From an uncultured bacterium (GTDB lineage Bacteria > Chloroflexota > Anaerolineae > J036 > Brachytrichaceae), in assembly GCA_903921365.1 (NCBI GenBank), contig CAIXPS010000320.1, positions 1 through 45,807 of the forward strand: DNA of 45,807 nucleotides, given 5' to 3'. Position numbers and translations under genes: made by a program. Of the stretch, positions 24,013-41,358 are shown one piece after another. Each line of letters begins with the position of its first letter. The stretch's first letter is position 1. The notes below the pieces were generated by a model. The model made no database searches. It saw nothing but the letters and a program-made list of their open reading frames with translations, and was not told the origin of the DNA.

Positions 24013-25413
24013 TCATCCGCCGAAATGCGTATTTGTCACAGCAGACAATGCGAGGGTCACAGCCTCTTCGATGCTGAGGCGCCTGCCGACTTCGAACGCG
24101 GCGTTGAACTCACCTGGCCCAAGCGCCAGCCGCATCATTGCGATAGCGCCCTCATGCGGCACCCGGTACTGGCGGTCTAGTTGAGCCTTTAACACTTCTG
24201 TGGCCGCCATGACTGCGCCGGACAGTTGGGCGGAACGCGCGGCGAAGCGCGCCTGCCGTCCGCCTTCCGCGCGATCGGCCATCAATGCCGCGAGCGCTGC
24301 CAGCCCCTGCGCCGTCTGTCGCCGGTCGCCGATGGCGTTCGACTGCGCCAGACCGGCCTTAAGCAGAATCTGCGACTGATCGAGCCTGCCCTCGGTGCGC
24401 GCCAGCATGCCCAGGCTGATGGTGCATTCGGCGCTGCCGCGTTTATCGCCGATGGCGCGCCGCAGCGACAGGCTCTGGTCGAACAACTGCCGCGCGGTCG
24501 TGTGATCGGCGCGCAAGACAGCCAGCGAGCCGAAGCTGTGCAATGCCCACGCGAGGACCCGCCGGTTGCCCATGTCGCGCGCCAGGATCAGGCTCTCCTC
24601 CAGCAACGTTCGCGCCGTCTCGTCGTCGCCCTCCTGGCACGCGGTATCGCCCGCGTTGTTCAACACCCATGCGACGCCCAGCTTGTTGGCGCGTTCGCGA
24701 AAAATGGCGAGGCTCTCGTCATAGCGCGCCTGAGCGGCTGTGTAATAGCCCTGATGGTGCAGCACCTCGCCGATATTGCTCAACGCCCACGCAACGCCAT
24801 CGCGATCTTCGGCAGCCCGAAAGAGCGCGAGGCTATCGTCGTAGTACGACCGCGCCAGGCCATAGTCGCTTTGCACGAGCCCGAGGTTGCCGAGGCTGAG
24901 CAATGCCCACGCGATTCCTGGCTGATCCTCGAGTGCGCGCCGCAGCGCCAGGCTCTCCTCAAATAAGGCGTGGGCGGCCCCATAGTCGGCGAGGTTGGCG
25001 GCTACGTTGGCGAGGTTGAATAACGCATATGCAATGCCGCGCTGATCTCCCATGGCGCGGCGCAATCCCAGGGATTCCTCAAACAACTTGCGCGCCATGA
25101 GGATGTCGCCTTGCTCACCGGCGACGGCGCCGAGGTTGTTGAGCGTCAACGCAATCTGCGCCGCGTCGCCAATGGCGCGACGCAACTCAAGCGCCTGCTC
25201 GAACAATGGGCGCGCCTGCGTATGATCGCCGCGCGTCGCCGCGATCTCGCCGAGGTTGTTTAGCGTCCACGCGATGCCGACGTTGTCGCCCACTTGCCGG
25301 AACAACGCGTGGCTTTCCTCGAACAGCGTTTGCGCTGTCGTATAGTCGCCCTCGTTGACTGCCGCAATGCCCGCGCGCAGGCGCGCGATGGCCGCGCTTC
25401 GTATATCGTCCAT
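24013..25413 (-). CDS. TPR protein like the C-terminal half of LuxR/AfsR regulators
   Basis: This 466-aa protein holds about nine 40-residue TPR units from the start to about residue 370. Each is of the form DYTTAQTLFEESHALFRQVGD followed by GIAWTLNNLGEIAA, and the repeats are visible as a 120-bp period in the DNA. The C-terminal block (ARSAQLSGAVMAATE, then GEFNAAFEVGRRLSIEEAV) is the closing domain usually found at the end of large ATPase-TPR regulators of the LuxR/AfsR type. The ATPase and DNA-binding parts are missing, and no neighbour supplies them, so it is either a stand-alone scaffold or a cut-down regulator. It is divergent from the HerA-like gene, with 58 bases between the starts. 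Confidence 0.85.
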   Translation of the reverse strand: MDDIRSAAIARLRAGIAAVNEGDYTTAQTLFEESHALFRQVGDNVGIAWTLNNLGEIAATRGDHTQARPLFEQALELRRAIGDAAQIALTLNNLGAVAGEQGDILMARKLFEESLGLRRAMGDQRGIAYALFNLANVAANLADYGAAHALFEESLALRRALEDQPGIAWALLSLGNLGLVQSDYGLARSYYDDSLALFRAAEDRDGVAWALSNIGEVLHHQGYYTAAQARYDESLAIFRERANKLGVAWVLNNAGDTACQEGDDETARTLLEESLILARDMGNRRVLAWALHSFGSLAVLRADHTTARQLFDQSLSLRRAIGDKRGSAECTISLGMLARTEGRLDQSQILLKAGLAQSNAIGDRRQTAQGLAALAALMADRAEGGRQARFAARSAQLSGAVMAATEVLKAQLDRQYRVPHEGAIAMMRLALGPGEFNAAFEVGRRLSIEEAVTLALSAVTNTHFGG

Positions 25414-25471
25414 GTCTAGATGTGCATGATACTTGATGTGCGGCGTGGTGGCTTATGATTAGCATGTGCCA

Positions 25472-25507
25472 ATGATTGACCCGATGATTGACCCGGTGAT
25501 TGACCAA
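25472..25507. repeat. 12-bp tandem repeat, three units, at the ATPase start
   Basis: Three near-identical 12-base units (atgattgacccg) open the gene. The first two each start with ATG and the third with GTG, so initiation could occur at any of them without losing frame. Confidence 0.85.
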
Positions 25508-26869
25508 CCTGGAAAGCTGTTCCTGGGACGTGACTATGATCTCGCCCAAGGCAAGGCGCTCGATGCGCCCTTTATGCTCCCCATGCGCGACCTGACGACA
25601 CATGCGGTGTGCCTGGGCATGACCGGCGCCGGTAAGACCGGGCTGGGCATCTGCCTGCTGGAGGAGACGTTGTTGCAGGGCGTCCCGGTCATCATCATCG
25701 ACCCCAAAGGCGACATCACCCATCTGGCGCAGTCGTTCCCCGACCTTGCGCCAGTGCAGTTCAAGCCATTACTGGACGACGACGAGGTCGCGCGTTGGAA
25801 GAACGGGCTGGCCGACTGGGGCATTGGCGAGGATCGCGGCGAGGATCGCGGCGAGGATCGCATACAGAAGATGCGCGACCGTGTGGCGGTTGATGTCTAC
25901 ACCCCCGGCAGCGACGCCGGCATCAGGGTGAACCTGCTGCAGGGGCTGAACCCGCCCGACCCATCCAACGGGTTGACGTGGGAGCACAACGCCGCGGCGC
26001 TGCGCGAACGCATCGCCCAGATCGTCTCTGCGTTGCTTGATCTGGCGGGCATCGCTTCGGACCCGCTCAAAGGGCGCGAGCACATCCTGTTGTCTACGAT
26101 CTTCGAGACGACCTGGCGCGTCGGGAACCCGATCGACATCAACCTGCTCATCCGCATGATCCAGGAACCGCCGGTGTCGCGCATCGGCGTCTTCGATATG
26201 AATGTGTTCTATCCAAAGGCCGAGCGCTTCGATCTGGCGATGGCATTGAATAACCTGCTCGCCGCGCCGTCGTTCGGCGCATGGCAGACCGGTCAGCCGC
26301 TCGATATTCCCAGCTTGCTCAAGCCATTGCGCGACGGCGGCGCCAGCCCGGCCGGCAGGACGCGCGCGAGCATCTTCTCCCTGGCGCATCTGAGCGACGC
26401 TGAACGGCAGTTTTTCATTGCGTTGCTGCTGTCGCAACTTGTGCTGTGGATGCGGGCGCAGACCGGCACATCGGTGTTGCGCTGCCTGGTGTATTTCGAC
26501 GAGGTCTTTGGCTATTGCCCGCCTTTTCCGCGCAACCCGCCCTCCAAGACGCCGCTGCTGACCCTCATCAAACAGGGGCGCACCGCCGGCATTGGCATGA
26601 TGCTGGGGACGCAGAACCCGGCGGATCTCGATTACAAAGGGCTGTCGAACATCGGCACGTGGTTCATCGGGCGGCTGCGCACCGCGCGGGATCGTTCGGG
26701 CGCGCTCGAAGGACTTGAGAGCGCGGGCGTCGCCTTCGACCGCGCGGAATACGAAGACCCGCTCAGCACACTGCCGCCGCGCGTGTTTCTGGCGCAAAGC
26801 ATTAGAGGGACGCCACGCTTCTTCCAGGCGCGTTGGACGATGAGCTTTTTACGGGGCACACGAACATGA
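25472..26869 (+). CDS. HerA/VirB4-like ATP-binding protein, possibly C-terminally short
   Basis: This 465-aa P-loop ATPase has Walker A GMTGAGKTGLG (Lys55), IIIDPKGDITHL soon after, and Walker B LVYFDEVFG (Asp343, Glu344). The sensor-like stretch GMMLGTQNPADLDYK is typical of HerA/VirB4-type translocases that move DNA or protein through hexamer pores. It stops at ARWTMSFLRG, a point where longer relatives, as I recall them, continue with a further domain. The stop overlaps the next gene by ATGA. Two perfect 12-bp triplications encode MIDPMIDPVIDQ at the N-terminus and GEDRGEDRGEDR at 119-130. A GTG two codons upstream is an alternative start; no ribosome-binding site is visible. No nuclease or NurA partner is nearby. 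Confidence 0.82.
   Translation: MIDPMIDPVIDQPGKLFLGRDYDLAQGKALDAPFMLPMRDLTTHAVCLGMTGAGKTGLGICLLEETLLQGVPVIIIDPKGDITHLAQSFPDLAPVQFKPLLDDDEVARWKNGLADWGIGEDRGEDRGEDRIQKMRDRVAVDVYTPGSDAGIRVNLLQGLNPPDPSNGLTWEHNAAALRERIAQIVSALLDLAGIASDPLKGREHILLSTIFETTWRVGNPIDINLLIRMIQEPPVSRIGVFDMNVFYPKAERFDLAMALNNLLAAPSFGAWQTGQPLDIPSLLKPLRDGGASPAGRTRASIFSLAHLSDAERQFFIALLLSQLVLWMRAQTGTSVLRCLVYFDEVFGYCPPFPRNPPSKTPLLTLIKQGRTAGIGMMLGTQNPADLDYKGLSNIGTWFIGRLRTARDRSGALEGLESAGVAFDRAEYEDPLSTLPPRVFLAQSIRGTPRFFQARWTMSFLRGTRT
25826..25861. repeat. 12-bp tandem repeat, three perfect units
   Basis: GGCGAGGATCGC stands three times in frame and encodes three Gly-Glu-Asp-Arg units in a surface loop between the Walker motifs. Copy number can change without a frameshift. 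Confidence 0.9.
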
Positions 26870-27105
26870 TCACGTTTTACTATCGTCCACGGTGCGGCCT
26901 GTGCCGCGAAGTTGAAGTCCCGCTGATGCAATACGCGAAACAGTATCGCGTGCCCGTGAAGCACGTCAACATCGACGAGGACAAAGCCGCCTTCGCGTTG
27001 TACTGGGACAAAATCCCCGTGATCGAGATCGCCGGCGGCCCGACGTTTTTTGAGCCGATCTCGCGTGAGATATTGAGAAGAGCGATCAGAGAGATTGGAG
27101 ATTAG
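26866..27105 (+). CDS. glutaredoxin/thioredoxin-fold protein (DUF836-like)
   Basis: This 79-aa small thiol-redox protein has an N-terminal FYYRPRCGLCREVEVPL with a CxxC active site (Cys10 and Cys13) and the cis-Pro loop KIPVIEI at about 55. This is the pattern of glutaredoxin-like DUF836 proteins. The ATG at 26866 overlaps the stop of the ATPase gene (ATGA), so translation is coupled. The last dozen residues (REILRRAIREIGD) are encoded by the start of a GA-rich repeat, so the natural C-terminus may have been replaced. The physiological partner is unknown. Confidence 0.85.
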   Translation: MITFYYRPRCGLCREVEVPLMQYAKQYRVPVKHVNIDEDKAAFALYWDKIPVIEIAGGPTFFEPISREILRRAIREIGD

Positions 27106-27136
27106 AGTTCGGAGATTGGAGCTTGGAGCTTGGAGA
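27085..27136. repeat. GA-rich heptamer-like repeat
   Basis: Units such as ggagatt and ggagctt repeat from the end of the glutaredoxin-like gene into the gap before the ChbG gene. It is close in sequence to the left arm of the birA palindrome but has no matching right arm here. Confidence 0.7.
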
Positions 27137-27157
27137 ACGCGGCTTATACTGAAACAC

Positions 27158-29236: not shown

Positions 29237-29270
29237 GGAGACGCTGACATGCATATGTGCCGGCGTCTCC
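29237..29270 (+). terminator. hairpin after the oxidoreductase gene
   Basis: GGAGACGC (29237-29244) pairs perfectly with GCGTCTCC (29263-29270), and the loop holds a second small palindrome. The following T-run is weak (TTCTG), so termination may be partial. It ends ten bases before the tRNA-like remnant. Confidence 0.5.
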
Positions 29271-29279
29271 TTCTGCGCT

Positions 29280-29344
29280 GTTCAAATGGATAGAACACCG
29301 CCGTCCTAAGGCGGGTGGTGCGATTTAAGTCCTGCCAGGGGGAC
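29280..29344 (+). pseudogene. degraded tRNA-Arg(CCT) copy
   Basis: Bases 29287-29317 are identical to 31 bases of the intact tRNA-Arg at 40259-40289, covering most of the D-arm and all of the anticodon arm with anticodon CCT. The T-arm has a one-base deletion and substitutions. The 5' acceptor strand is not recognisable and the 3' strand (agggggac) is altered, so no cloverleaf can close. It is a duplicated or left-behind tRNA fragment, and could be the left end of an integrated element. Confidence 0.8.
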
Positions 29345-29433
29345 TTTCGTTCACATACGTAAAGCGCTGATGAGATCACTTGGATGTACTTGGCGCTTAT
29401 GTGTTTATGCCGCCGCTGATAGGGGTGAAATTG

Positions 29434-30762
29434 ATGCTGGATATGCCTTTCTTCACACAAATCGATCCACGCGCCAAGATCAAGGGTTCGCGAGACCCTC
29501 TGGGAGTACAACCGGTCTGGAGCCGGATGGGGCGCCAGGTTGTGCGTAACCTCACCACTGTGACTACGTCACTACGGGGTTTCACTACGCTCTTACTCGG
29601 TTTGTACGTCGCTGAACGTGTGACGGATGACGCCACTGCGGAGGAGGGCGAGTTTCTGGCGGCGTTCTTGAAGTTCGAGCAGCTTGCTGCTTACAGCCGT
29701 GTTGCGATATCACAACAAACGGGCGGCGCCATTGGCGCCAACGGAGAGGACAGGGAAAACACCATCCGGGGGATTCGGCGTGTGGAGCGCAAATTGATTG
29801 AGGGAAAGGGCAAAGTTCAGATATCCGCCAACTCCGAGGATCAAATCCTTTCCAACCAGAAAACCTACGGGCTGTGGGGGTTGTATAGCGTTGCGGCGCG
29901 GAACAGCGGTTTGCTGGAACAGGGGAGTTCGCGCTTGACTGCAAAGGCACGCGAGTTCATCGAGTTGAATTATCGCTCGCGCCTGCAGAGCGCCGACCAC
30001 AACGCAGACGTTCTCAAGCTGTTCCGGAGTAAGTTCGTCTTTGAACCGAAGAGCAAACATGCAAAACTCGCGCGCAACCTTGCAGAGATGCTCGGCCCCA
30101 CTGTGACCAAACTGGAACAGGAGTTTTACAACAAGCACCTCATCACCTGCCTATCCGACCATCCCAATGAGATTCAGGAACGGCTGTGGAAGCAGATGCG
30201 AAGGACAAGTTCAGAAGATGGATTTTCATGCGACGAATTGCTGCAGATCATTGGCCGATGCCAGGCAGAGGGTGATGATGAACTGGCTCGGCGACTCGAC
30301 CATATCCGGGTGACAGAATCCGTCATCGCGCCGGCCAGCCGGCTGTTTAGCTTCGTCCTTGGTCAGGATGGACAAGCGCTTGACGCGATTGCACTAAACG
30401 TGCAGGACACCTGGGGCGCCCGCCTGTCGCACATCGCCCCCGACAGTTTTATAAGCGCTCTCAGCGGCATCGGCGAAGAGCTTGGCGTTGAGAAATGCAA
30501 CCGGCTCGGGCATTTGGCAAAAGCCCTGGCGGCTGGTGACTATGGCGCTGCAATCGAGCTCTTGCTCGCACAAAATCGTGAGGTCATGCGCGAGCGTGGA
30601 GGCGACGCCTGGGTAAAAATGAAAGGAAGCCGCATCGATGTGCGGCTCCGGGCGGAAGCAGGAAGCCTCCCTCCCGGTGAGGTGCTTCCCACACTGTGGA
30701 TGTATAACTATTTTCTGAACTCACTAAACCAGATTGGGTTTGAGATCGAGCGAGGTGCATGA
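29434..30762 (+). CDS. unknown protein, first gene of the PLD-helicase operon
   Basis: I cannot place this 442-aa protein in a family. It looks mostly helical and soluble. The N-terminal block (PFFTQIDPRAKIKGSRDPLG, then QPVWSRMGRQVVRNLTTV and RGFTTLLLGLYVAER) has the dense invariant-looking residues of a conserved domain. The middle contains a helical stretch with LWGLYSVAARNSGLL and the C-terminus WMYNYFLNSLNQIGFEIE. No catalytic motif is evident, so a recognition or structural role is plausible. The ATG at 29434 is chosen because AGGGGTG stands six bases before it; the frame is open back to 29380. The PLD gene begins one base after its stop. Confidence 0.82.
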   Translation: MLDMPFFTQIDPRAKIKGSRDPLGVQPVWSRMGRQVVRNLTTVTTSLRGFTTLLLGLYVAERVTDDATAEEGEFLAAFLKFEQLAAYSRVAISQQTGGAIGANGEDRENTIRGIRRVERKLIEGKGKVQISANSEDQILSNQKTYGLWGLYSVAARNSGLLEQGSSRLTAKAREFIELNYRSRLQSADHNADVLKLFRSKFVFEPKSKHAKLARNLAEMLGPTVTKLEQEFYNKHLITCLSDHPNEIQERLWKQMRRTSSEDGFSCDELLQIIGRCQAEGDDELARRLDHIRVTESVIAPASRLFSFVLGQDGQALDAIALNVQDTWGARLSHIAPDSFISALSGIGEELGVEKCNRLGHLAKALAAGDYGAAIELLLAQNREVMRERGGDAWVKMKGSRIDVRLRAEAGSLPPGEVLPTLWMYNYFLNSLNQIGFEIERGA

Positions 30763-30763
30763 G

Positions 30764-32794
30764 ATGAGTGCCAACATACCTGAATCCGTGCTCTCGGATG
30801 CCTTGCAGGAGGCCATCAAAGACCGGCGGGTCAAAACGGCCGTATTCCTGACCTTTCAATTTGACCCTGCTTTCTTCGAGGCGGATATCCTGCCGGTGCT
30901 GTTTACACAGTCGTTCAGTCATGTGGCGAAACTGCGCCTGCTGCAGTTAGAGGAGGTACTCCACACGGTCAATCATATTGCCGTGTATTACGACCGCCAG
31001 GGACTCACCAGCGATGCTGAGCCCGCGCAGCTTGATTACCGCCGCATCGGACTTGCGCGCTCGATCGGTATTTTCCACCCGAAGAATATCCTGCTGTTGC
31101 TGGAGAACACGGATAAGGATCAGACTTGGGAAAGCCTGCTCTTTGGGACGCTTTCGGCTAACCTAACGCGTTCTGGCTGGTGGGAGAACGTCGAGACAGC
31201 GCATTTCATGGAAGTCCATGAGGGTGAAGCCTGTTCGTATCGCGATGAATTGCTCCGACTTATATCGCGCATTAAACAGGAGGACCGCATTGAAGAGGAG
31301 CACTTGGCACTCGAAGCGATACGCACCTTTCTCTTGCGCCAAATTATCACACCGAGAAATAACAGAAAAAACGGTCGCTTGCTGCCGCAAGTCTATGTCG
31401 GGCAGAATACTGTCCCGGAATACCTGGTCGATTTCACTTCGCGAGACAGCTTCAACCTGGAAATCATCTCCCCTTACTTCGACGCCACAGCGACGGCTTT
31501 ACTCATCTTGCTGGATACCGTTCAGCCCAAAGCAGTGCGTATCTTCCTGCCAAAGGATACGAGTGGCGCGGCACAATGCACCCCAGAGTTCAACGAAGCG
31601 ATACAACAGCGCGCACGTGTGGAATGGGGGCTGTTGCCGGATGCGATGTTGAGCATGGGGACTGGCAGTGAGACCAACGCCGCCAACAGGTTCGTTCATG
31701 CCAAGGTGTATCGCTTCTGGAACCAGCAACGCGAAATTCTATTCATCGGCTCGGTCAATCTGACCAGCCCGGCGCATTCCGCAGGCAACGCGGGCAACTT
31801 CGAGACAGGTGTGCTCGTGGAGCCTGATTCGAGCGGCCAACGCACCTGGTGGCTGAAATCACTTGAAGAGGACGTGCCTGTCCAGTTCCATCCCGAGAAT
31901 GTGGAAGACGTAGAGCCTGACGCTGCTGTTGGCGATGTGTCATTCCAGTTTGACTGGAAAAGCGGTGTTTTCCAGTATTTCTGGGAACGACGACCACAAA
32001 TTACCCCTGACAGGGCGACCCTTCGCATGCAAGGCGTTTGCGTCGAAGAGAATATCCGCATACGCTTCGACAAGTGGGTTCCTCTCTCTAATGAATGTGC
32101 GGAAAAGGTAAAGCAACAACTTGCTTCCACCTCGTTCGTCGAGGTGAGTGCAGACGGTCAGGAGCAATTCAGAGTATTGGTGCGCGAGGAGCAGATGGCA
32201 TACAAGCCATCGATTCTGCTTACACTGACGCCTGAGGATATCCTGCAGTACTGGTCGTTGCTCTCGCCCGAACAGCGCGAATTACTCTTGATCACTAAAA
32301 TCCTCACTGCTCCTGGTGGCGCGGACGTGATCAGTCAGATGGGCATTCCGTTACCATATACGACACAAACCACTATGTTTGACCGGTTTGCGGGTATTTT
32401 CCATGCGTTCGCGCGGCTGGAAGTCCACCTGAACGACGCACTGAATCGAGGTCTTGAATCAGAGGCGGTCTATCGCCTGTTTGGACATAAATTTGATTCA
32501 TTGCCATCGCTCATCAACAAGGTTATCCAGGATGAGAACGACGACCGGGTGAATCGCTATGTGTCGTTGCTGTGTGCAGGACAGACGGTCGAGCATGTTC
32601 GCAAAGGATATTCCGAGTTTACGCAGCGACACCGCAGCGACTTTGCGGAATTAAAGCGCCAGCTTGAGGCAATAGCGCAGATCAGATCAGGATTTACATT
32701 CGACACACCCGAACAACGCCAGATGTTTTTCGATTGGTTCGAGGAGATGTTCTCTGCCAAACTGGATAGCGCGAAAGCCGAGGTGACAGAATGA
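30764..32794 (+). CDS. phospholipase-D-family protein (two HxK motifs)
   Basis: This 676-aa protein has two PLD half-sites. The first is FHPKN (His105, Lys107) followed by FGTLSANLTRS. The second is FVHAKVY (His312, Lys314) followed by FIGSVNLTSP. Both use the HxK...GS/N form of the PLDc_2 group, without the Asp of the classic HKD motif, which is common in nucleases of this superfamily. A further 350 residues with no recognised domain follow, ending in a charged helical region. In operons like this the PLD protein is usually taken as a nuclease working with the helicase, but phosphodiesterase activity on lipid or cofactor cannot be excluded. It starts one base after the first gene and overlaps the helicase by ATGA. 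Confidence 0.88.
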   Translation: MSANIPESVLSDALQEAIKDRRVKTAVFLTFQFDPAFFEADILPVLFTQSFSHVAKLRLLQLEEVLHTVNHIAVYYDRQGLTSDAEPAQLDYRRIGLARSIGIFHPKNILLLLENTDKDQTWESLLFGTLSANLTRSGWWENVETAHFMEVHEGEACSYRDELLRLISRIKQEDRIEEEHLALEAIRTFLLRQIITPRNNRKNGRLLPQVYVGQNTVPEYLVDFTSRDSFNLEIISPYFDATATALLILLDTVQPKAVRIFLPKDTSGAAQCTPEFNEAIQQRARVEWGLLPDAMLSMGTGSETNAANRFVHAKVYRFWNQQREILFIGSVNLTSPAHSAGNAGNFETGVLVEPDSSGQRTWWLKSLEEDVPVQFHPENVEDVEPDAAVGDVSFQFDWKSGVFQYFWERRPQITPDRATLRMQGVCVEENIRIRFDKWVPLSNECAEKVKQQLASTSFVEVSADGQEQFRVLVREEQMAYKPSILLTLTPEDILQYWSLLSPEQRELLLITKILTAPGGADVISQMGIPLPYTTQTTMFDRFAGIFHAFARLEVHLNDALNRGLESEAVYRLFGHKFDSLPSLINKVIQDENDDRVNRYVSLLCAGQTVEHVRKGYSEFTQRHRSDFAELKRQLEAIAQIRSGFTFDTPEQRQMFFDWFEEMFSAKLDSAKAEVTE

Positions 32795-35700
32795 TCCATG
32801 AAATCAACATCGATACGGCGCGTGAGCTACTCGACTACTCGGGCGGGCAAGCCAGCCGCGACGTCACATGGGAAGGTCAACTGGAAGGTGCGGTTGCCCT
32901 GCACAATATCCTGGTGCGCGAGAAGTTCGCCTATCTGGCCGACGAAGTGGGCATGGGCAAGACCTACGTGGCGCTCGGTGTGGTTGCATTATTCCGCCAC
33001 TTTAACCCGGGTTTCCGCGTGCTCTACATTGCCCCGCGCGAGAATATCCAGGAGAAGTGGAAGAAGGAACTGCTGAACTTCACGGCGAATAACTGGCGCG
33101 TCACCGACAACCACGTGCGCTCCTACCAGGGCACGCCTGCTTATGGCGTCACGCTGTGCAGCAACCTGTTGGATTTTGCGCGCCAAGCGATACTAAACCC
33201 AAAGCGGGATTTCATCTTGCGGATGACGAGCTTCAGTTTCGGGCTTTCGAAAGAACCTAACCAATGGAACAGCAAGCGTGATGATTTGCTGCGTGAAATC
33301 CCATTCCTGAAAGATCGGAATGTGTCAAGGGATTCTATTTTCGATCTGCGTGATAAGAAAGAATTCAAGGAACACTATGCCCGTGCTGTTAACGCTGTGT
33401 TGCCCCATTTCGACTTGGTGGTGGTGGATGAAGGGCATAACCTGAAGTATGGCTTGAGCGACAGCAATGCTTCGCGCAATTGGTTGATCGCTCACGTGCT
33501 TGGGAACCCTGTGGGGCGTCATCCAGATTTCCCAAACTACGGACTTCGCTATGACCGGGTGCTGGTATTATCGGCGACACCGCTTGAGAACGACTATCGC
33601 CATCTGTGGAATCAACTCGACCTGTTTGGTTTTGGCAAAAACTTGTCCGTACTTCAGGACTCCCAGGCCAGTGAGTTAGAGAAAGAGCAGACGGTCGGCC
33701 GTTTCCTCATCCGCCGGTTGACAGGGTTGACGATCGGCGGGCAGGTACACACCAAGAACATGTATCGTCGTGAATGGCGCAGCGGGGGAGTGGATACACA
33801 CGACCAACCCTTACATGTCCCTGGTGACAAACAGCGCCTGATTGTGGCGCTTGTGCAGAAGAAAGTAGCCGAGGTGATCGGCAGCGAAGCATTCAACAAC
33901 AGCTTCCAGATCGGCATGCTGGCGTCGTTTGAAAGCTTTATGGAAACGGCCAAGGCAAGGCAACCGGACGCCGATGAGCCGACGACATTTGATGATTCCG
34001 ACCAGACTGACATTGACCGTGAAAAAGATGGTATTGACGTCAAGTCGATCAATTTCCTGTCAAGCTCATATCGCATGAAGTTTGATTCCAGCCTGCCTCA
34101 CCCTAAGATGGACGCCGTAGCTGCCAGCGTGCGTGAAAGTTTCGCGACCGGCGAGAAGTCGCTCATCTTCGTGCGCCGCGTAATGAGTGTGAAGGATTTG
34201 TGCGAAAAGATCAACCACTATTACGACGAATGGTTGAAACGCTATTTACTAAAAAACCTTCCCAAATTGACTGTGGAATTCGAGCAGGTGTTCGACAAAT
34301 ATGAAAAGGAGCGCAAGCACCTTACAGATCAACCGCGACCGCAACCCGCACAAAACCTGTTAGCTGATGAGAACGTCCTGCTAGATCCTGTGAAGGAAGA
34401 TGCAGGGGGTAATGACAACTTTTTCGCTTGGTTTTTCCGTGGCGAAGGCCCGAAAGGGATTTTCTCCGGCGCGGCATTTAACCGCAACCGGTTAACCAGC
34501 GAAGGGTCTGCCTACTCCACATTGTTTGAAGATAATTACATTACTGGACTCATTGGAGAATTCAATGACCCGCTCAATGAGATCGCTGCGCAAGTGGGGT
34601 TATTGCGCGGCGAATGTGCGCAGCAGTTGTGCGAAATGGCATATAGATTGTTTCGCCAGGAATCCCGACAGAGAGTATTCAGACAGAAGCGCGTCTTTGA
34701 GGCTTATCAAAAGGCTGCACTGATGTTAGTGGCGGATCGAGCTACCAGTGATGACCTGAGACAACGAGCGCAGATCGTATTGGACGTGCGTTTTAACATG
34801 CCAAAGATATCTCGCATGGATGCCCTGCCAGCAGAGGGCTTTCCTAAACCAGAAGAACATTTGACCACGCGCACCGTGTTTACAGAACTGGTGAAACGCC
34901 CGGGATTGTGCAATATCCTGTGGCCGGAGGAAAAAGCCCTCGACTTCGCAGCGCAATTCCGCCGGCGGGATCAACGCCGCGAGTTGCTTTCCGCCGCCGC
35001 GCGTCTGGGTCACCCGCTGATCGATCTGTGGCTGCTCGCAGTCGAGCATCTGGGCTCACTCCGTGCCGGGGCGCAGAGTCGCACCGAGGATCGCGCCGGT
35101 GATCTAATCAGGGATTATTTGGATAAGCTCGAACAGCAACAAGCTGAAGGAGCAGGACATTACACGGCATATCGCGAACTTGCAGATATCGCCAGCCATT
35201 TTGACTTGATCATGGCCGTAAACTTCCCGGACGTACGAAACGGTCGGACGCTGGATGAATTGCGTAAATACTTTGGATCGAGTCTTGCGCGCCAGACCCC
35301 CGTAGGCCGGATGTCTGGTCGCGTCAACACAAGTCTGGTAGGTCAGTTCCGCATGCCCGGTTACCCGCTTGTTCTAGTCACCACCGAAGTACTGCAGGAA
35401 GGTGAAGATTTGCACACATTCTGCTCACGGGTTGTGCATTACGGCATCTCGTGGACGCCGTCCTCCATGGAGCAACGCACCGGGCGGATAGACCGGATCA
35501 ACTCGCAGACCCAGCGACGGCTTGACAACCGTAGCATAGTGGGCGCAGACGAACTGCTGCAGGTGTATTACCCGCACCTCGGCGACACAGTGGAACGGCT
35601 GCAGGTGGAGCGCGTATATGAACGGATGAACCGCTTCATCCGTATGATGCACCGATCGCTCGCGGGTGAACAGGTAAAAGATAGTCGTGTGAATACCCTG

Positions 35701-36360
35701 CACGATTTCGTGTTGCCGCCACGAGACATAGAGCCCATCACGGAGCCGTTAGAAACGGCCTACCCGGTGAAGGAAGACTGGCTGCGCCATGATCTGCCGG
35801 TGGAGCGCACTGACGAAAAAGCTAAAGCGGATGCAGCGCTGGCGCATTTCATAGCAATGGTGACTGCGCTCGAAAACACCGTCTATGTAGAACGCCAACG
35901 AATTAGTGAGCAATGGGCCTGTGTTGGAACCGTCTATCCTTTAGCACAGGGACGCGACCGGTTGACAGCGCCAGGCGGAGACAAAAGTGCATCGCGGCGC
36001 CAGCCATTCCGGCTGGAAATACGCTCGATGGGGGGTAACGGACACCTGCTGTTGCGCTGCTTCAGCCCAATTGGTCCCAAGGTAGTGAATGGCTGGCAAG
36101 AAGCAAATGAAATACAACTTTTACATACGAAGGCAGGGTTTGGAAAGTTGTGTGCGACACAAGGCAGCTTGGCGAAATCTTTCCACCTGAGTATCCAGGC
36201 CGATATACTCTTTCACCCCGCGACGACGCAGCCACAAGAGGTTATTGATCTGGTGGAGCGGACGACTTGCACAGCCGACAGGCTGGAACGAGAGCTTCTG
36301 GACAGCGATCAACCTATTGAAGCTCTGATCGATCAACTCACGGAGGGTTCAGATGAATGA
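32791..36360 (+). CDS. SNF2-type superfamily 2 helicase/ATPase
   Basis: This 1189-aa protein is the largest of the operon. Helicase motif I is ADEVGMGKTYVA (Lys57), motif II VVVDEGHN (Asp213, Glu214), motif III LSATP (261-265). Motif V is TEVLQEGEDLH and motif VI EQRTGRIDR (Gln895 to Arg902). About 600 residues lie between motif III and motif V, a large insertion compared with compact helicases, including a Lys/Glu-rich segment near 500. The C-terminal 240 residues have no recognised domain. All ATPase residues are present. It is expected to translocate on DNA or move bound protein. It overlaps the PLD gene by four bases and the next gene by eight. Confidence 0.93.
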   Translation: MIHEINIDTARELLDYSGGQASRDVTWEGQLEGAVALHNILVREKFAYLADEVGMGKTYVALGVVALFRHFNPGFRVLYIAPRENIQEKWKKELLNFTANNWRVTDNHVRSYQGTPAYGVTLCSNLLDFARQAILNPKRDFILRMTSFSFGLSKEPNQWNSKRDDLLREIPFLKDRNVSRDSIFDLRDKKEFKEHYARAVNAVLPHFDLVVVDEGHNLKYGLSDSNASRNWLIAHVLGNPVGRHPDFPNYGLRYDRVLVLSATPLENDYRHLWNQLDLFGFGKNLSVLQDSQASELEKEQTVGRFLIRRLTGLTIGGQVHTKNMYRREWRSGGVDTHDQPLHVPGDKQRLIVALVQKKVAEVIGSEAFNNSFQIGMLASFESFMETAKARQPDADEPTTFDDSDQTDIDREKDGIDVKSINFLSSSYRMKFDSSLPHPKMDAVAASVRESFATGEKSLIFVRRVMSVKDLCEKINHYYDEWLKRYLLKNLPKLTVEFEQVFDKYEKERKHLTDQPRPQPAQNLLADENVLLDPVKEDAGGNDNFFAWFFRGEGPKGIFSGAAFNRNRLTSEGSAYSTLFEDNYITGLIGEFNDPLNEIAAQVGLLRGECAQQLCEMAYRLFRQESRQRVFRQKRVFEAYQKAALMLVADRATSDDLRQRAQIVLDVRFNMPKISRMDALPAEGFPKPEEHLTTRTVFTELVKRPGLCNILWPEEKALDFAAQFRRRDQRRELLSAAARLGHPLIDLWLLAVEHLGSLRAGAQSRTEDRAGDLIRDYLDKLEQQQAEGAGHYTAYRELADIASHFDLIMAVNFPDVRNGRTLDELRKYFGSSLARQTPVGRMSGRVNTSLVGQFRMPGYPLVLVTTEVLQEGEDLHTFCSRVVHYGISWTPSSMEQRTGRIDRINSQTQRRLDNRSIVGADELLQVYYPHLGDTVERLQVERVYERMNRFIRMMHRSLAGEQVKDSRVNTLHDFVLPPRDIEPITEPLETAYPVKEDWLRHDLPVERTDEKAKADAALAHFIAMVTALENTVYVERQRISEQWACVGTVYPLAQGRDRLTAPGGDKSASRRQPFRLEIRSMGGNGHLLLRCFSPIGPKVVNGWQEANEIQLLHTKAGFGKLCATQGSLAKSFHLSIQADILFHPATTQPQEVIDLVERTTCTADRLERELLDSDQPIEALIDQLTEGSDE

Positions 36361-36781
36361 GTTGAGAGTAATGCTCAAAGAAATCGCCAAAATGACCAGA
36401 CGAGGGCAACTTGACGGACACATGCCCTATCTTCTGGAAATAAAGCCTCTCAGTAATACAGTGAGTGTGGTGTTTGCCAGCGGGAGGCGCCAGGATGTCG
36501 TGATTGAGGAGGATGGCGAATACTATGTGATGGCCTCGACAGTGATGGGAACGCAGCGTGTTCAGGGGATCACCGACGATGATTTTTTTACTCGGCTGTG
36601 GCAGCGCAATGCACATACTGATGTCGTTGCATTTGGGCTGGACAAGAAAGGGCGCCTGATTGGCCGCACTACCCACCTGAAGCAGACGCTGGACCAGGAT
36701 GAGTTACGCTTTTACATCGAGATACTGGCGCGCGAGTGCGACCAGCTTGAATACCTGCTTACCGGCGTCGATACGCAATGA
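36353..36781 (+). CDS. small protein resembling the YbjN/type-III-chaperone fold
   Basis: This 142-aa acidic, soluble protein has the sequence pattern of the YbjN/CesT-like fold: VSVVFASGRRQDVVIEED, YYVMASTVMG, VVAFGLDKKGRLIGRTT, then the helix LDQDELRFYIEILARECDQLEYLLTG. Such proteins act as chaperones or dimer adaptors rather than enzymes. The ATG at 36353 overlaps the helicase stop by eight bases and is preceded by GGAGGG within the helicase reading frame, which shows tight coupling. I infer a partner-binding role for the helicase or nuclease. The fold call is by eye only. Confidence 0.72.
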   Translation: MNELRVMLKEIAKMTRRGQLDGHMPYLLEIKPLSNTVSVVFASGRRQDVVIEEDGEYYVMASTVMGTQRVQGITDDDFFTRLWQRNAHTDVVAFGLDKKGRLIGRTTHLKQTLDQDELRFYIEILARECDQLEYLLTGVDTQ

Positions 36782-36814
36782 GCCATTGAAGAGTTAAACG
36801 GAGGCCAGAAAACA

Positions 36815-37972
36815 ATGCCCGATTACATACTTTCTAAAGATGATGCTACTCACGCATGGCAGCGTGTGCCGGAACAGCAATTGCCTGACGAGGATATGTT
36901 GCAGCGACTGGTAAACGATAACCCGGAAGTGCTACCGTTAGGAGATCTGTCTGATGATGTGCCCCCTCTCTTCATTGTGGCGCGTGAGGCGACACTGGAT
37001 AACGGAAACGTTGACGTTATTGGAGTGGACTGGAATGGGCTCATCACGGTCATCGAGTGCAAACTGGACCGCAACCCCGAAGTGAAACGCAAGGTCATCG
37101 GGCAGATCCTTGGTTACGCGGCGTATCTTTGGGGTATGACGTATGAGGCGTTTGAACAAAAAATCGCGCGCGTCTACTTCGACTCAAACCGGTGCCCTCG
37201 CAGTGACCTCAAAGGCGTCGCGCTGGATGAGGCGATGGAGCGCTTTGTACAAGGGCAGAAAAAGCAATCACCAGATGTCGAGTGGAGCAGAGAGGCATTT
37301 CGCCAGGCAGTAACAACGAATCTCACGGAAGGGCGTTTCCGTCTTCTCATCGTCGTCGATAAAGTAAACGACGAGCTTCGCCGCACCGTGGAGTATCTGA
37401 ATGCGTGCACCGATCCTACCTTTGAGGTTCTCTGTGCTGAACTGCGCTATTTTTCAACCGAACATACTCAATTGCTGGTCCCGGCAGTGATGGGCAAACC
37501 GGCAGTCACAAAATCCACTGCACAACAAGGTGCTAAGTCGACATGGACATTAGAACGTTTCCTGTCGGTTTTACTGGAGCAAGTCGGAGAAGAGGCCGTA
37601 CGGGTAGCGACACAACTGTATGACTGGTGCGGACAAAACTGTGCCGTGACCAAATGGGGATCGGGCACTGAAATTGGCCTGTTTTATAGTGTTATCAACA
37701 AGGATACCTCTGCCGTGCCATTTCTGGTCCGTTCAGATGGCAAGATAGAGATCGCTTTCCAGTACATGAAACGGTATCCGCCATTCGATCAAGAGACGAC
37801 GCGACACGCCTGGTGGGGTATGTTCAGCGAGAAAGTCGGTCAGAGCCTGCCAAACAAGGAGGGCAGACCGACAATGCCACTGACAGCATTGTCAGGCGAA
37901 CACGAGTATCAGGAATTCATCAATGTAGTGCAATGGGCTATTGACCAGGTTCGCGCCTCATGGAATAAGTAG
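36815..37972 (+). CDS. PD-(D/E)XK nuclease-domain protein
   Basis: This 385-aa protein carries a PD-(D/E)XK core. Asp67 is in GNVDVIGVD, and Glu81 and Lys83 are in VIECKLDRN, followed by the helix VIGQILGYAAYL, which is the usual fourth element. This form is like DUF91/NucS or restriction-type nucleases. A long C-terminal part (about 240-385) with GTEIGLFYSV and EIAFQYM has no domain I know and may bind DNA or a partner. GGAGG stands about ten bases before the ATG. It lies 33 bases after the small gene and ends the operon. Confidence 0.88.
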   Translation: MPDYILSKDDATHAWQRVPEQQLPDEDMLQRLVNDNPEVLPLGDLSDDVPPLFIVAREATLDNGNVDVIGVDWNGLITVIECKLDRNPEVKRKVIGQILGYAAYLWGMTYEAFEQKIARVYFDSNRCPRSDLKGVALDEAMERFVQGQKKQSPDVEWSREAFRQAVTTNLTEGRFRLLIVVDKVNDELRRTVEYLNACTDPTFEVLCAELRYFSTEHTQLLVPAVMGKPAVTKSTAQQGAKSTWTLERFLSVLLEQVGEEAVRVATQLYDWCGQNCAVTKWGSGTEIGLFYSVINKDTSAVPFLVRSDGKIEIAFQYMKRYPPFDQETTRHAWWGMFSEKVGQSLPNKEGRPTMPLTALSGEHEYQEFINVVQWAIDQVRASWNK

Positions 37973-40242: not shown

Positions 40243-40316
40243 GCCCTCGTAGTTCAATTGGATAGAACACCGCCGTCCTAAGGCGGGTGTTGTGGGTTCA
40301 AGTCCTGCCGGGGGCA
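40243..40316 (+). tRNA. tRNA-Arg, anticodon CCT
   Basis: The 74-base gene folds to a full cloverleaf: acceptor gccctcg with cgggggc (one T-G pair), D-stem GTTC/GAAC, anticodon stem CCGCC/GGCGG around loop gtcctaa with anticodon CCT, and T-loop ttcaagt on a five-pair stem. CCA is not encoded. It is the intact partner of the degraded copy at 29280. tRNA-Arg genes are common integration sites. Confidence 0.95.
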
Positions 40317-40367: not shown

Positions 40368-41358
40368 ATGTCAACCTTACTCCAGCAACTCGCGCAACCC
40401 GATGATCGCTGGGATGTGACCGACGCTGTTCGGCGCATGGTCACGTCTGGCGACCGCGCAAAGCGTGTTTTGCAACTCGACCCGTCGTGGGATCTCTTCT
40501 TTGACGCCGAAGCGCCGGTCGCGCTTGTCGCGCCGGATGGGCGAGTTCTGGCGCTTAAGTATGACCAGGATCGCCATGCCTTGCATGGCCCCGGCATGGC
40601 CGGTCTCGTCACTGCGAAGGATATGCCGCAAAGCGCCTGGCGCCTGGTGTTGGAATCCGCCGCGCCGCCTCGCTTCAGCCTGCGCGCGGAAACGCAACAA
40701 CAACCCGCCCTCGTTGCAAGCCTGACCACCGAGCGCGGTGTGCGGCTGTCCTTTACGTCTGACGAAGACCTGGCGCTGCTTGCCCGCCTCTCAAGCGGCT
40801 TTCGCACTCAGCCAGCAGGCTGCCATCTTCGCCGCCTCGCCCGGCTTTGACGAACTGCTCAGCCTGCCGTTGCTGCACGACGTGGAGCTGTTCCCGCACC
40901 AATTAAAGACGGCCAAGACCGTCCTGCGGCGTTTTCGTGGCCGCGCCTTATTATGCGACGAGGTCGGCCTGGGCAAAACAATCGAAGCCGGCATGATCCT
41001 GCTTGAACTGCTCATGCGCAAGCTGGTGCGCCGCGTCTTGATCCTCACGCCCTCCTCACTGGTCGAGCAATGGCGAGGCGAGATGAGCCGCAAGTTCGGG
41101 CTGGACTTCATCGCGCAGGTGAGATTGCTCAACGTGTTCAACGTGATCCAGCCCAAGTTAAGCCTGCGAATCCGTCTCTTGCCACAAAAGGGCGCGCCGG
41201 GCGAAACCGGTATCGTGTTTGACCCTGTGACGCAGAAACCAGAGCCGTGGCCTTGCCCGACTTGCGGCTGGCCCACTATGTCGTTATCAGTCACACCCGC
41301 TGGTGATGTGTTGTGCACTGACTGCGCGTGCGCTGTCGTGCCTGGAAGGAAACGATGA
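40368..41358 (+). pseudogene. remnant of a SNF2/RapA-like helicase gene
   Basis: Two frames together give parts of one large helicase. The first (from 40368) encodes an N-terminal region (RWDVTDAVRRMV, DPSWDLFFDAEAPVALV). Near 40800 one extra base shifts the frame, and the second carries DVELFPHQLKTAKTVLRRF, motif I LLCDEVGLGKTIEAG and LILTPSSLVEQWRGEM. It then jumps at about 41120 to a segment unlike the expected middle, which ends in a zinc ribbon (CPTCGW, CTDCAC) that may be the old C-terminus. Motifs II to VI are missing, so a large internal deletion is likely and the product cannot work as a helicase. It lies just beyond the tRNA, 2.4 kb past the PLD-helicase operon. Confidence 0.8.

What the first reader, a model, noticed from the sequence alone, without database searches (positions are those of the whole stretch)
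29434..37972. Five-gene PLD-helicase-nuclease operon, candidate new anti-phage system
Five genes on one strand are joined by 1-base, 4-base overlap, 8-base overlap and 33-base junctions: unknown 442-aa protein, double-HxK PLD-family protein, SNF2-type helicase, YbjN-like small protein and PD-(D/E)XK nuclease. PLD plus helicase plus an unknown protein is the core content I recall for the Azaca defence system; the two added genes are not part of that description as I know it. By eye the operon is less GC-rich than its flanks. The system may be a distinct variant or a new one.
Basis: partly seen in the sequence, partly recalled or inferred. Interest (0 to 1): 0.82.

Follow-up and report, generated by a model that had tools for sequence, protein, structure and literature searches.

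The report
Four-gene helicase-nuclease operon, likely anti-phage
Bacteria from many phyla carry this compact gene set (a DNA-cutting enzyme, a DNA motor, a helper of unknown fold and a small chaperone-like protein that is sometimes fused to the motor), which looks like an untested relative of the Azaca anti-phage system with one extra part missing from the defence catalogues consulted here.

Summary
The operon is real and as described: five co-directional genes at 29434-37972, GC3 0.57-0.64 against 0.77-0.85 in the flanks. Genes 1-3 match a catalogued, untested candidate defence system, PDC-M27A/B/C in PADLOC, as distant members. They are co-linear with Azaca: PLD and helicase are homologous to ZacB/ZacC, and gene 1 shows weak but above-control profile similarity to ZacA (DUF6361). 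A scan of one genome per species gave 80 related loci; 67 carry A, B and C, always in that order. A sister clade mostly has it fused. Its predicted structure is a type III secretion chaperone/YbjN fold. Azaca helicases lack it. Gene 5, a PD-(D/E)XK nuclease like PADLOC's PDC-S11, is next to none of the 80 relatives and is probably independent island cargo. The operon is absent from the syntenic tRNA-Arg site of a congener. Verdict: a four-gene, chaperone-bearing variant of the Azaca/PDC-M27 kind, probably anti-phage; defence activity untested.

The parts
29434..30762 (+). Gene A, 442 aa, PDC-M27A-like; mostly helical, no Pfam domain; distant profile similarity to ZacA/DUF6361
   Evidence: PADLOC PDC-M27A 2.8e-19; found as first gene in 67 of 80 loci that carry all of A, B, C; AlphaFold2 pLDDT 92; hhalign to ZacA score 44.9 against controls of at most 22
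30764..32794 (+). Gene B, double-HxK PLD-family protein, PDC-M27B-like, homologous to ZacB (alternative TTG start at 30734)
   Evidence: Pfam PLDc_2 2.2e-6; PADLOC PDC-M27B 1.2e-19 and ZacB 7.1e-13; both HxK motifs at least 95% conserved in 39 sequences
32791..36360 (+). Gene C, 1189-aa SNF2-type helicase, PDC-M27C-like, homologous to ZacC
   Evidence: PADLOC PDC-M27C 2.1e-75 and ZacC 7.2e-25; helicase motifs intact; tree
36353..36781 (+). Gene D, 142-aa class I T3SS-chaperone/YbjN-fold protein; core component, fused to the helicase in relatives
   Evidence: Next gene in 34 of 38 close relatives and fused in 4; model pLDDT 91; 8q8o Z 14.0, ExsC Z 13.0, YbjN Z 9.9
36815..37972 (+). Gene E, 385-aa PD-(D/E)XK nuclease (PDC-S11-like, NucS-like); probably independent island cargo
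   Evidence: PADLOC PDC-S11 2.5e-19, NucS model 2e-4, ECK motif; absent from all 80 related loci
29265..29351 (+). Decayed copy of tRNA-Arg(CCT) at the left edge of the island
   Evidence: 84-89% identical to the intact tRNA at 40243-40316; not recognised as a tRNA by ARAGORN or Rfam; a congener has an intact tRNA-Arg here

Best explanation
A horizontally acquired four-gene DNA-targeting system, A-B-C-D, of the Azaca/PDC-M27 kind, most likely an anti-phage defence. Proposed working: C, an ATP-driven SNF2-type motor, moves along incoming DNA; B, a PLD-family nuclease, is the effector that cuts it; A, a mostly helical protein, binds DNA or links motor and nuclease; D, with the fold of peptide-binding secretion chaperones, sits on the helicase C-terminus as an assembly, inhibitory or sensing subunit that keeps the complex off, or switches it on when it binds a phage protein. 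Shown: operon, intact catalytic motifs, co-conservation, C-D fusion, predicted fold of D, absence from the syntenic site of a congener. Inferred: defence role, cutting of phage DNA, the jobs of A and D. Gene E is a separate nuclease that sits in the same island.
For: PADLOC hits of A, B, C to PDC-M27A/B/C. Same order A-B-C in 67 of 67 loci where all three are found. D present in 39 of 39 window-clade members, fused to C in 4 of them and in most of the sister clade. D model with T3SS-chaperone/YbjN fold. Co-linear homology to Azaca. Low GC3 and patchy presence: C absent from 400 genomes of the phylum and from the 19 nearest relatives. Syntenic site of a congener lacks the operon. Neighbours of relatives rich in defence-type families: 175 PADLOC models for 108 genes against 51 for 74 control genes.
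Against: No phage assay exists for this branch. PDC-M27 is itself unvalidated. In the window the immediate flanks are metabolic. A has no known fold match, so its role is a guess. The neighbour enrichment is modest, model counts are redundant and the control is small and from another genome. Peptide binding by D is inferred from fold only.
Confidence: 0.68

Rival explanations
1. An ordinary Azaca or PDC-M27 system in which D is a dispensable passenger or folding helper with no role of its own in defence.
For: A, B and C match PDC-M27 and Azaca; canonical PDC-M27 and Azaca loci have no detectable D.
Against: D is present in all 39 members of the window clade and repeatedly fused to the helicase, which is unlikely for a passenger.
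Confidence: 0.12
2. The five genes form one system in which the nuclease E is the effector or an essential part.
For: E is on the same strand 33 bases after D, with the same low GC3; E matches PDC-S11.
Against: No E homologue in any of 80 related loci; the gene after D varies: DprA, PLD-EVE, pentapeptide protein; E relatives stand alone on plasmids.
Confidence: 0.07
3. The operon serves DNA repair, replication or maintenance of mobile DNA and not defence.
For: The YbjN-fold protein DR1245 partners the single-strand DNA-binding repair protein DdrB (PMC3575483); helicases plus PLD nucleases could act in repair; some PDC-M27 loci lie on plasmids.
Against: Patchy distribution, island setting and variable defence-type neighbours; homology to Azaca, a system described as anti-phage (my knowledge: Millman et al. 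2022).
Confidence: 0.1

Closest known systems
PDC-M27 (PADLOC candidate system, PDC-M27A/B/C)
   Same: A, B and C all match and have the same gene order
   Different: Window proteins are distant (A 67 bits against 247 for a canonical member), lie in a separate helicase clade, and carry D, which PADLOC does not list
Azaca (ZacA = DUF6361, ZacB PLD, ZacC helicase)
   Same: Same three-gene plan and order; B and C homologous (hhalign 2.6e-16 and 3.3e-19); A distantly similar to ZacA
   Different: A does not match DUF6361 or the ZacA model; ZacC forms its own clade (support 100) and has no D
T3SS class I chaperone / YbjN superfamily (TY-chaperones)
   Same: Predicted fold of D: 8q8o Z 14.0, ExsC Z 13.0, YbjN Z 9.9
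   Different: Sequence identity only 10-17%; D is tied to a helicase and not to a secreted effector
PDC-S11 (PADLOC single-gene candidate)
   Same: Gene E matches at 2.5e-19 and has PD-(D/E)XK motifs
   Different: Here directly downstream of A-D; the relatives inspected stand alone
DISARM, Dpd, BREX and Mokosh helicase systems
   Same: Shared SNF2-type helicase domain, and PLD domain with DrmC
   Different: Scores far below the curated cut-offs of the DrmC, DrmD and DpdE equivalog models; no methyltransferase in the operon

Membership tests
PDC-M27 | Proteins matching the PDC-M27A, B and C models in one operon | tested here: met
   E 2.8e-19, 1.2e-19 and 2.1e-75, though A covers the profile mainly in its C-terminal part; PADLOC's own system-level cut-offs were not applied
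PDC-M27 | Helicase inside the canonical PDC-M27 clade | tested here: not met
   Window lies in a separate D-bearing clade, support 100, sister to the group that holds the canonical Chitinophaga member
Azaca | ZacA, a DUF6361 protein | tested here: not met
   No ZacA or PF19888 hit to A; only distant profile similarity
Azaca | PLD protein and helicase homologous to ZacB and ZacC, same order | tested here: met
   ZacB 7.1e-13, ZacC 7.2e-25; order in L141-L152
Azaca | Helicase inside the ZacC clade | tested here: not met
   12 ZacC form one clade, support 100, without the window (quick method, long branches)
T3SS chaperone / YbjN fold (gene D) | alpha-beta-beta-beta-alpha-beta-beta-alpha chaperone fold | tested here: met
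   Predicted model pLDDT 91, Z up to 14.0 with a gap to Z 4.2 for the next class
T3SS chaperone / YbjN fold (gene D) | Binds a partner protein or peptide | not testable with these tools
   Inferred from fold and from fusion to C only
DISARM | DrmC/DrmD above curated cut-off and a methyltransferase | tested here: not met
   DrmC 19.7 of 133 bits, DrmD 65 of 610 bits; no methyltransferase among the five genes
Anti-phage defence system | Reduces phage infection when present | not testable with these tools
   Needs a plaque assay

The most novel reading that the evidence does not exclude
D is a peptide-binding sensor built into a helicase-nuclease defence complex: the system is switched on when the chaperone-like domain captures a phage protein, so that protein sensing directly licenses a DNA motor and a PLD nuclease.
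Probability: 0.25. Interest if true: 0.75.

Novelty: new variant of a known kind. Interest (0 to 1): 0.52.

Why it matters
It places Azaca, PDC-M27 and this clade in one superfamily with a shared A-B-C plan, and identifies a fourth, co-conserved part that the catalogues consulted do not list. A secretion-chaperone fold fused to a SNF2 helicase gives a concrete, testable handle on how such helicase-PLD systems, whose mechanism I found no account of, are assembled or switched on. The system occurs in cultured bacteria (Dyella, Pseudomonas, Marinobacter, Micromonospora), so it can be tested.

Tried and rejected
Searches of the window's phylum with A, with C and with the PDC-M27C model gave no homologues outside the window's own genome (the L007 hit to A is spurious, from a frame broken by stops). 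Viral contigs gave none, nor did plasmids at strict thresholds. Fold search for A: no PDB or viral match stood out (best VIA-align Z 4.0, 91 aligned; Foldseek E at least 0.6), which does not show a new fold; weak rows to winged-helix proteins were not pursued. A first ZacA alignment included wrong-strand sequences and was discarded; with 8 narrow ZacA sequences the signal was not significant, and it rose only with diverse ones. The window clade alone gives a weak score (28.9), so A-ZacA homology rests on the whole M27A family. Canonical PDC-M27 helicase tails show at most a hint of D (hhalign pairwise E 2.9e-4, prob 40%). No convincing promoter: fewer sites than in shuffles. tRNA-targeted integration was considered, but no integrase was seen in the island and the intact tRNA keeps its own flanks at the right end, so the insertion route is unresolved.

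Full report
Observation. The five ORFs exist at the stated places, with junctions of 1 base (from the ATG of B), a 4-base overlap, an 8-base overlap and 33 bases. GC and GC3 fall sharply inside the operon. Catalytic motifs of the PLD protein, the helicase and the PD-(D/E)XK nuclease are intact.

Families. Pfam sees only PLDc_2 in B, helicase domains in C and sub-threshold CesT/YbjN hints in D. PADLOC matches A, B and C to PDC-M27A, B and C and E to PDC-S11; B and C also match ZacB and ZacC of Azaca. PDC entries come from a guilt-by-embedding screen and most are unvalidated (PMC12988326); no paper in the library names PDC-M27.

Relatives. Plasmid searches gave two A-B-C loci, in Rhodoferax and Vibrio, without D or E. 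In 67 of them A, B and C are all found, always in this order and on one strand. The loci span more than ten phyla, among them Acidobacteriota, Planctomycetota, Myxococcota, Pseudomonadota, Actinomycetota, Chlorobiota, Gemmatimonadota, Bacteroidota, Spirochaetota and Bacillota.

Gene D. The small gene follows the helicase in 34 of the 38 closest relatives and is the C-terminal domain of the helicase in the other 4. In a helicase tree the window's clade has 39 rows including the window (support 100), 35 with separate D and 4 with fused D. Its sister clade of 20 rows has 14 fused, 3 separate and 3 with no D detected. A more distant group of 17 rows, which holds canonical PDC-M27 (Chitinophaga), mostly has no detectable D. 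The 12 Azaca helicases form one clade (support 100) without D. So D is a core part of this branch and probably bound to the helicase. Its AlphaFold2 model (pLDDT 91) has the fold of class I type III secretion chaperones and YbjN proteins: 8q8o Z 14.0 (rmsd 2.6, 125 aligned), ExsC Z 13.0 (rmsd 3.0, 119 aligned), YbjN Z 9.9 (rmsd 2.7, 114 aligned), with a gap to the next class at Z 4.2. TY-chaperones of this superfamily were predicted as peptide binders in other conflict systems (PMC9503650), and DR1245, of the same fold, binds the DNA-repair protein DdrB (PMC3575483).

Gene A. A confident, mostly helical model (pLDDT 92) has no outstanding match in the PDB or viral library. Azaca loci fetched from the window's phylum and from plasmids show the same gene order with a DUF6361 protein in place of A. 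Profile comparison of A with a diverse ZacA set gives score 44.9 (prob 68%, P 5e-5), against at most 22 to 23 for 60 block-permuted profiles, a reversed profile and unrelated families. The shared region is an N-terminal SRDxLG segment and what follows. I read this as remote homology, supported by the shared gene position, but not proven.

Gene E. No homologue of E lies in any of the 80 loci. What follows D elsewhere varies: DprA, a PLD-EVE protein, a pentapeptide protein. E relatives stand alone on plasmids, in one case next to an integrase and on the same plasmid as an RloB-type pair. E is most likely a separate nuclease in the same island.

Context. 108 nearest neighbours of the relatives match 175 PADLOC models at 1e-15, among them GajB-type, DrmD-type and IetA; Pfam shows HsdM, type III restriction subunits, PD-(D/E)XK nucleases and integrases. 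74 genes from the window's own genome match 51. Per protein this is about 2.4-fold more, but model counts are redundant and the control is small. In the window the flanks are metabolic (YdjC and Gfo/Idh upstream, thioesterase and fucose-isomerase-like downstream). In a congener the Gfo/Idh gene is followed by an intact tRNA-Arg(CCT) and, 3.3 kb on, the thioesterase, with no operon. The window has a decayed tRNA-Arg copy at that place, then the operon, and the intact tRNA 11 kb further. Neither C nor E is found in the four congeners searched.

Mechanism. C is the motor and B the probable nuclease; A is an adaptor or DNA-recognition part; D is a subunit on the helicase C-terminus for assembly, restraint or sensing. 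Only architecture and motifs are shown; the actions are inferred. No methyltransferase was found among the five genes, so self/non-self discrimination does not appear to come from a modification encoded here.

Verdict. A real, widespread, four-gene branch of the Azaca/PDC-M27 kind with a chaperone-fold component that PADLOC does not list: a new variant of a known kind, probably defence, unproven.

Noticed in passing
window 29265-29351 and 40243-40316: Decayed tRNA-Arg(CCT) copy at the left edge of the island and an intact tRNA-Arg(CCT) 11 kb to the right; a congener has an intact tRNA-Arg at the left position. The site looks like a hot spot for insertions.
   Followed up: partly
window 40738-41358: Short ORF with an SNF2-related domain fragment just right of the intact tRNA-Arg, possibly the remnant of another helicase system.
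   Followed up: no
window 24013-25413 and 25466-26869: A TPR-repeat protein with a 120-bp repeat period next to a HerA-like ATPase, divergently oriented, upstream of the island.
   Followed up: no
window 27095-27140: Purine-rich short repeat (units like GATTGGA/GCTTGGA) that matches many dispersed sites in the window's genome and in one congener.
   Followed up: no
L018:5041-6105: Directly after a D-fused helicase in a Planctomycetaceae MAG lies a protein with a PLD domain fused to an EVE domain, a possible modified-base-directed nuclease.
   Followed up: no
L076, L089-L091, L093 helicase C-termini: Long tails of canonical PDC-M27 helicases show a weak profile similarity to D, so a diverged D domain may be more widespread.
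   Followed up: partly
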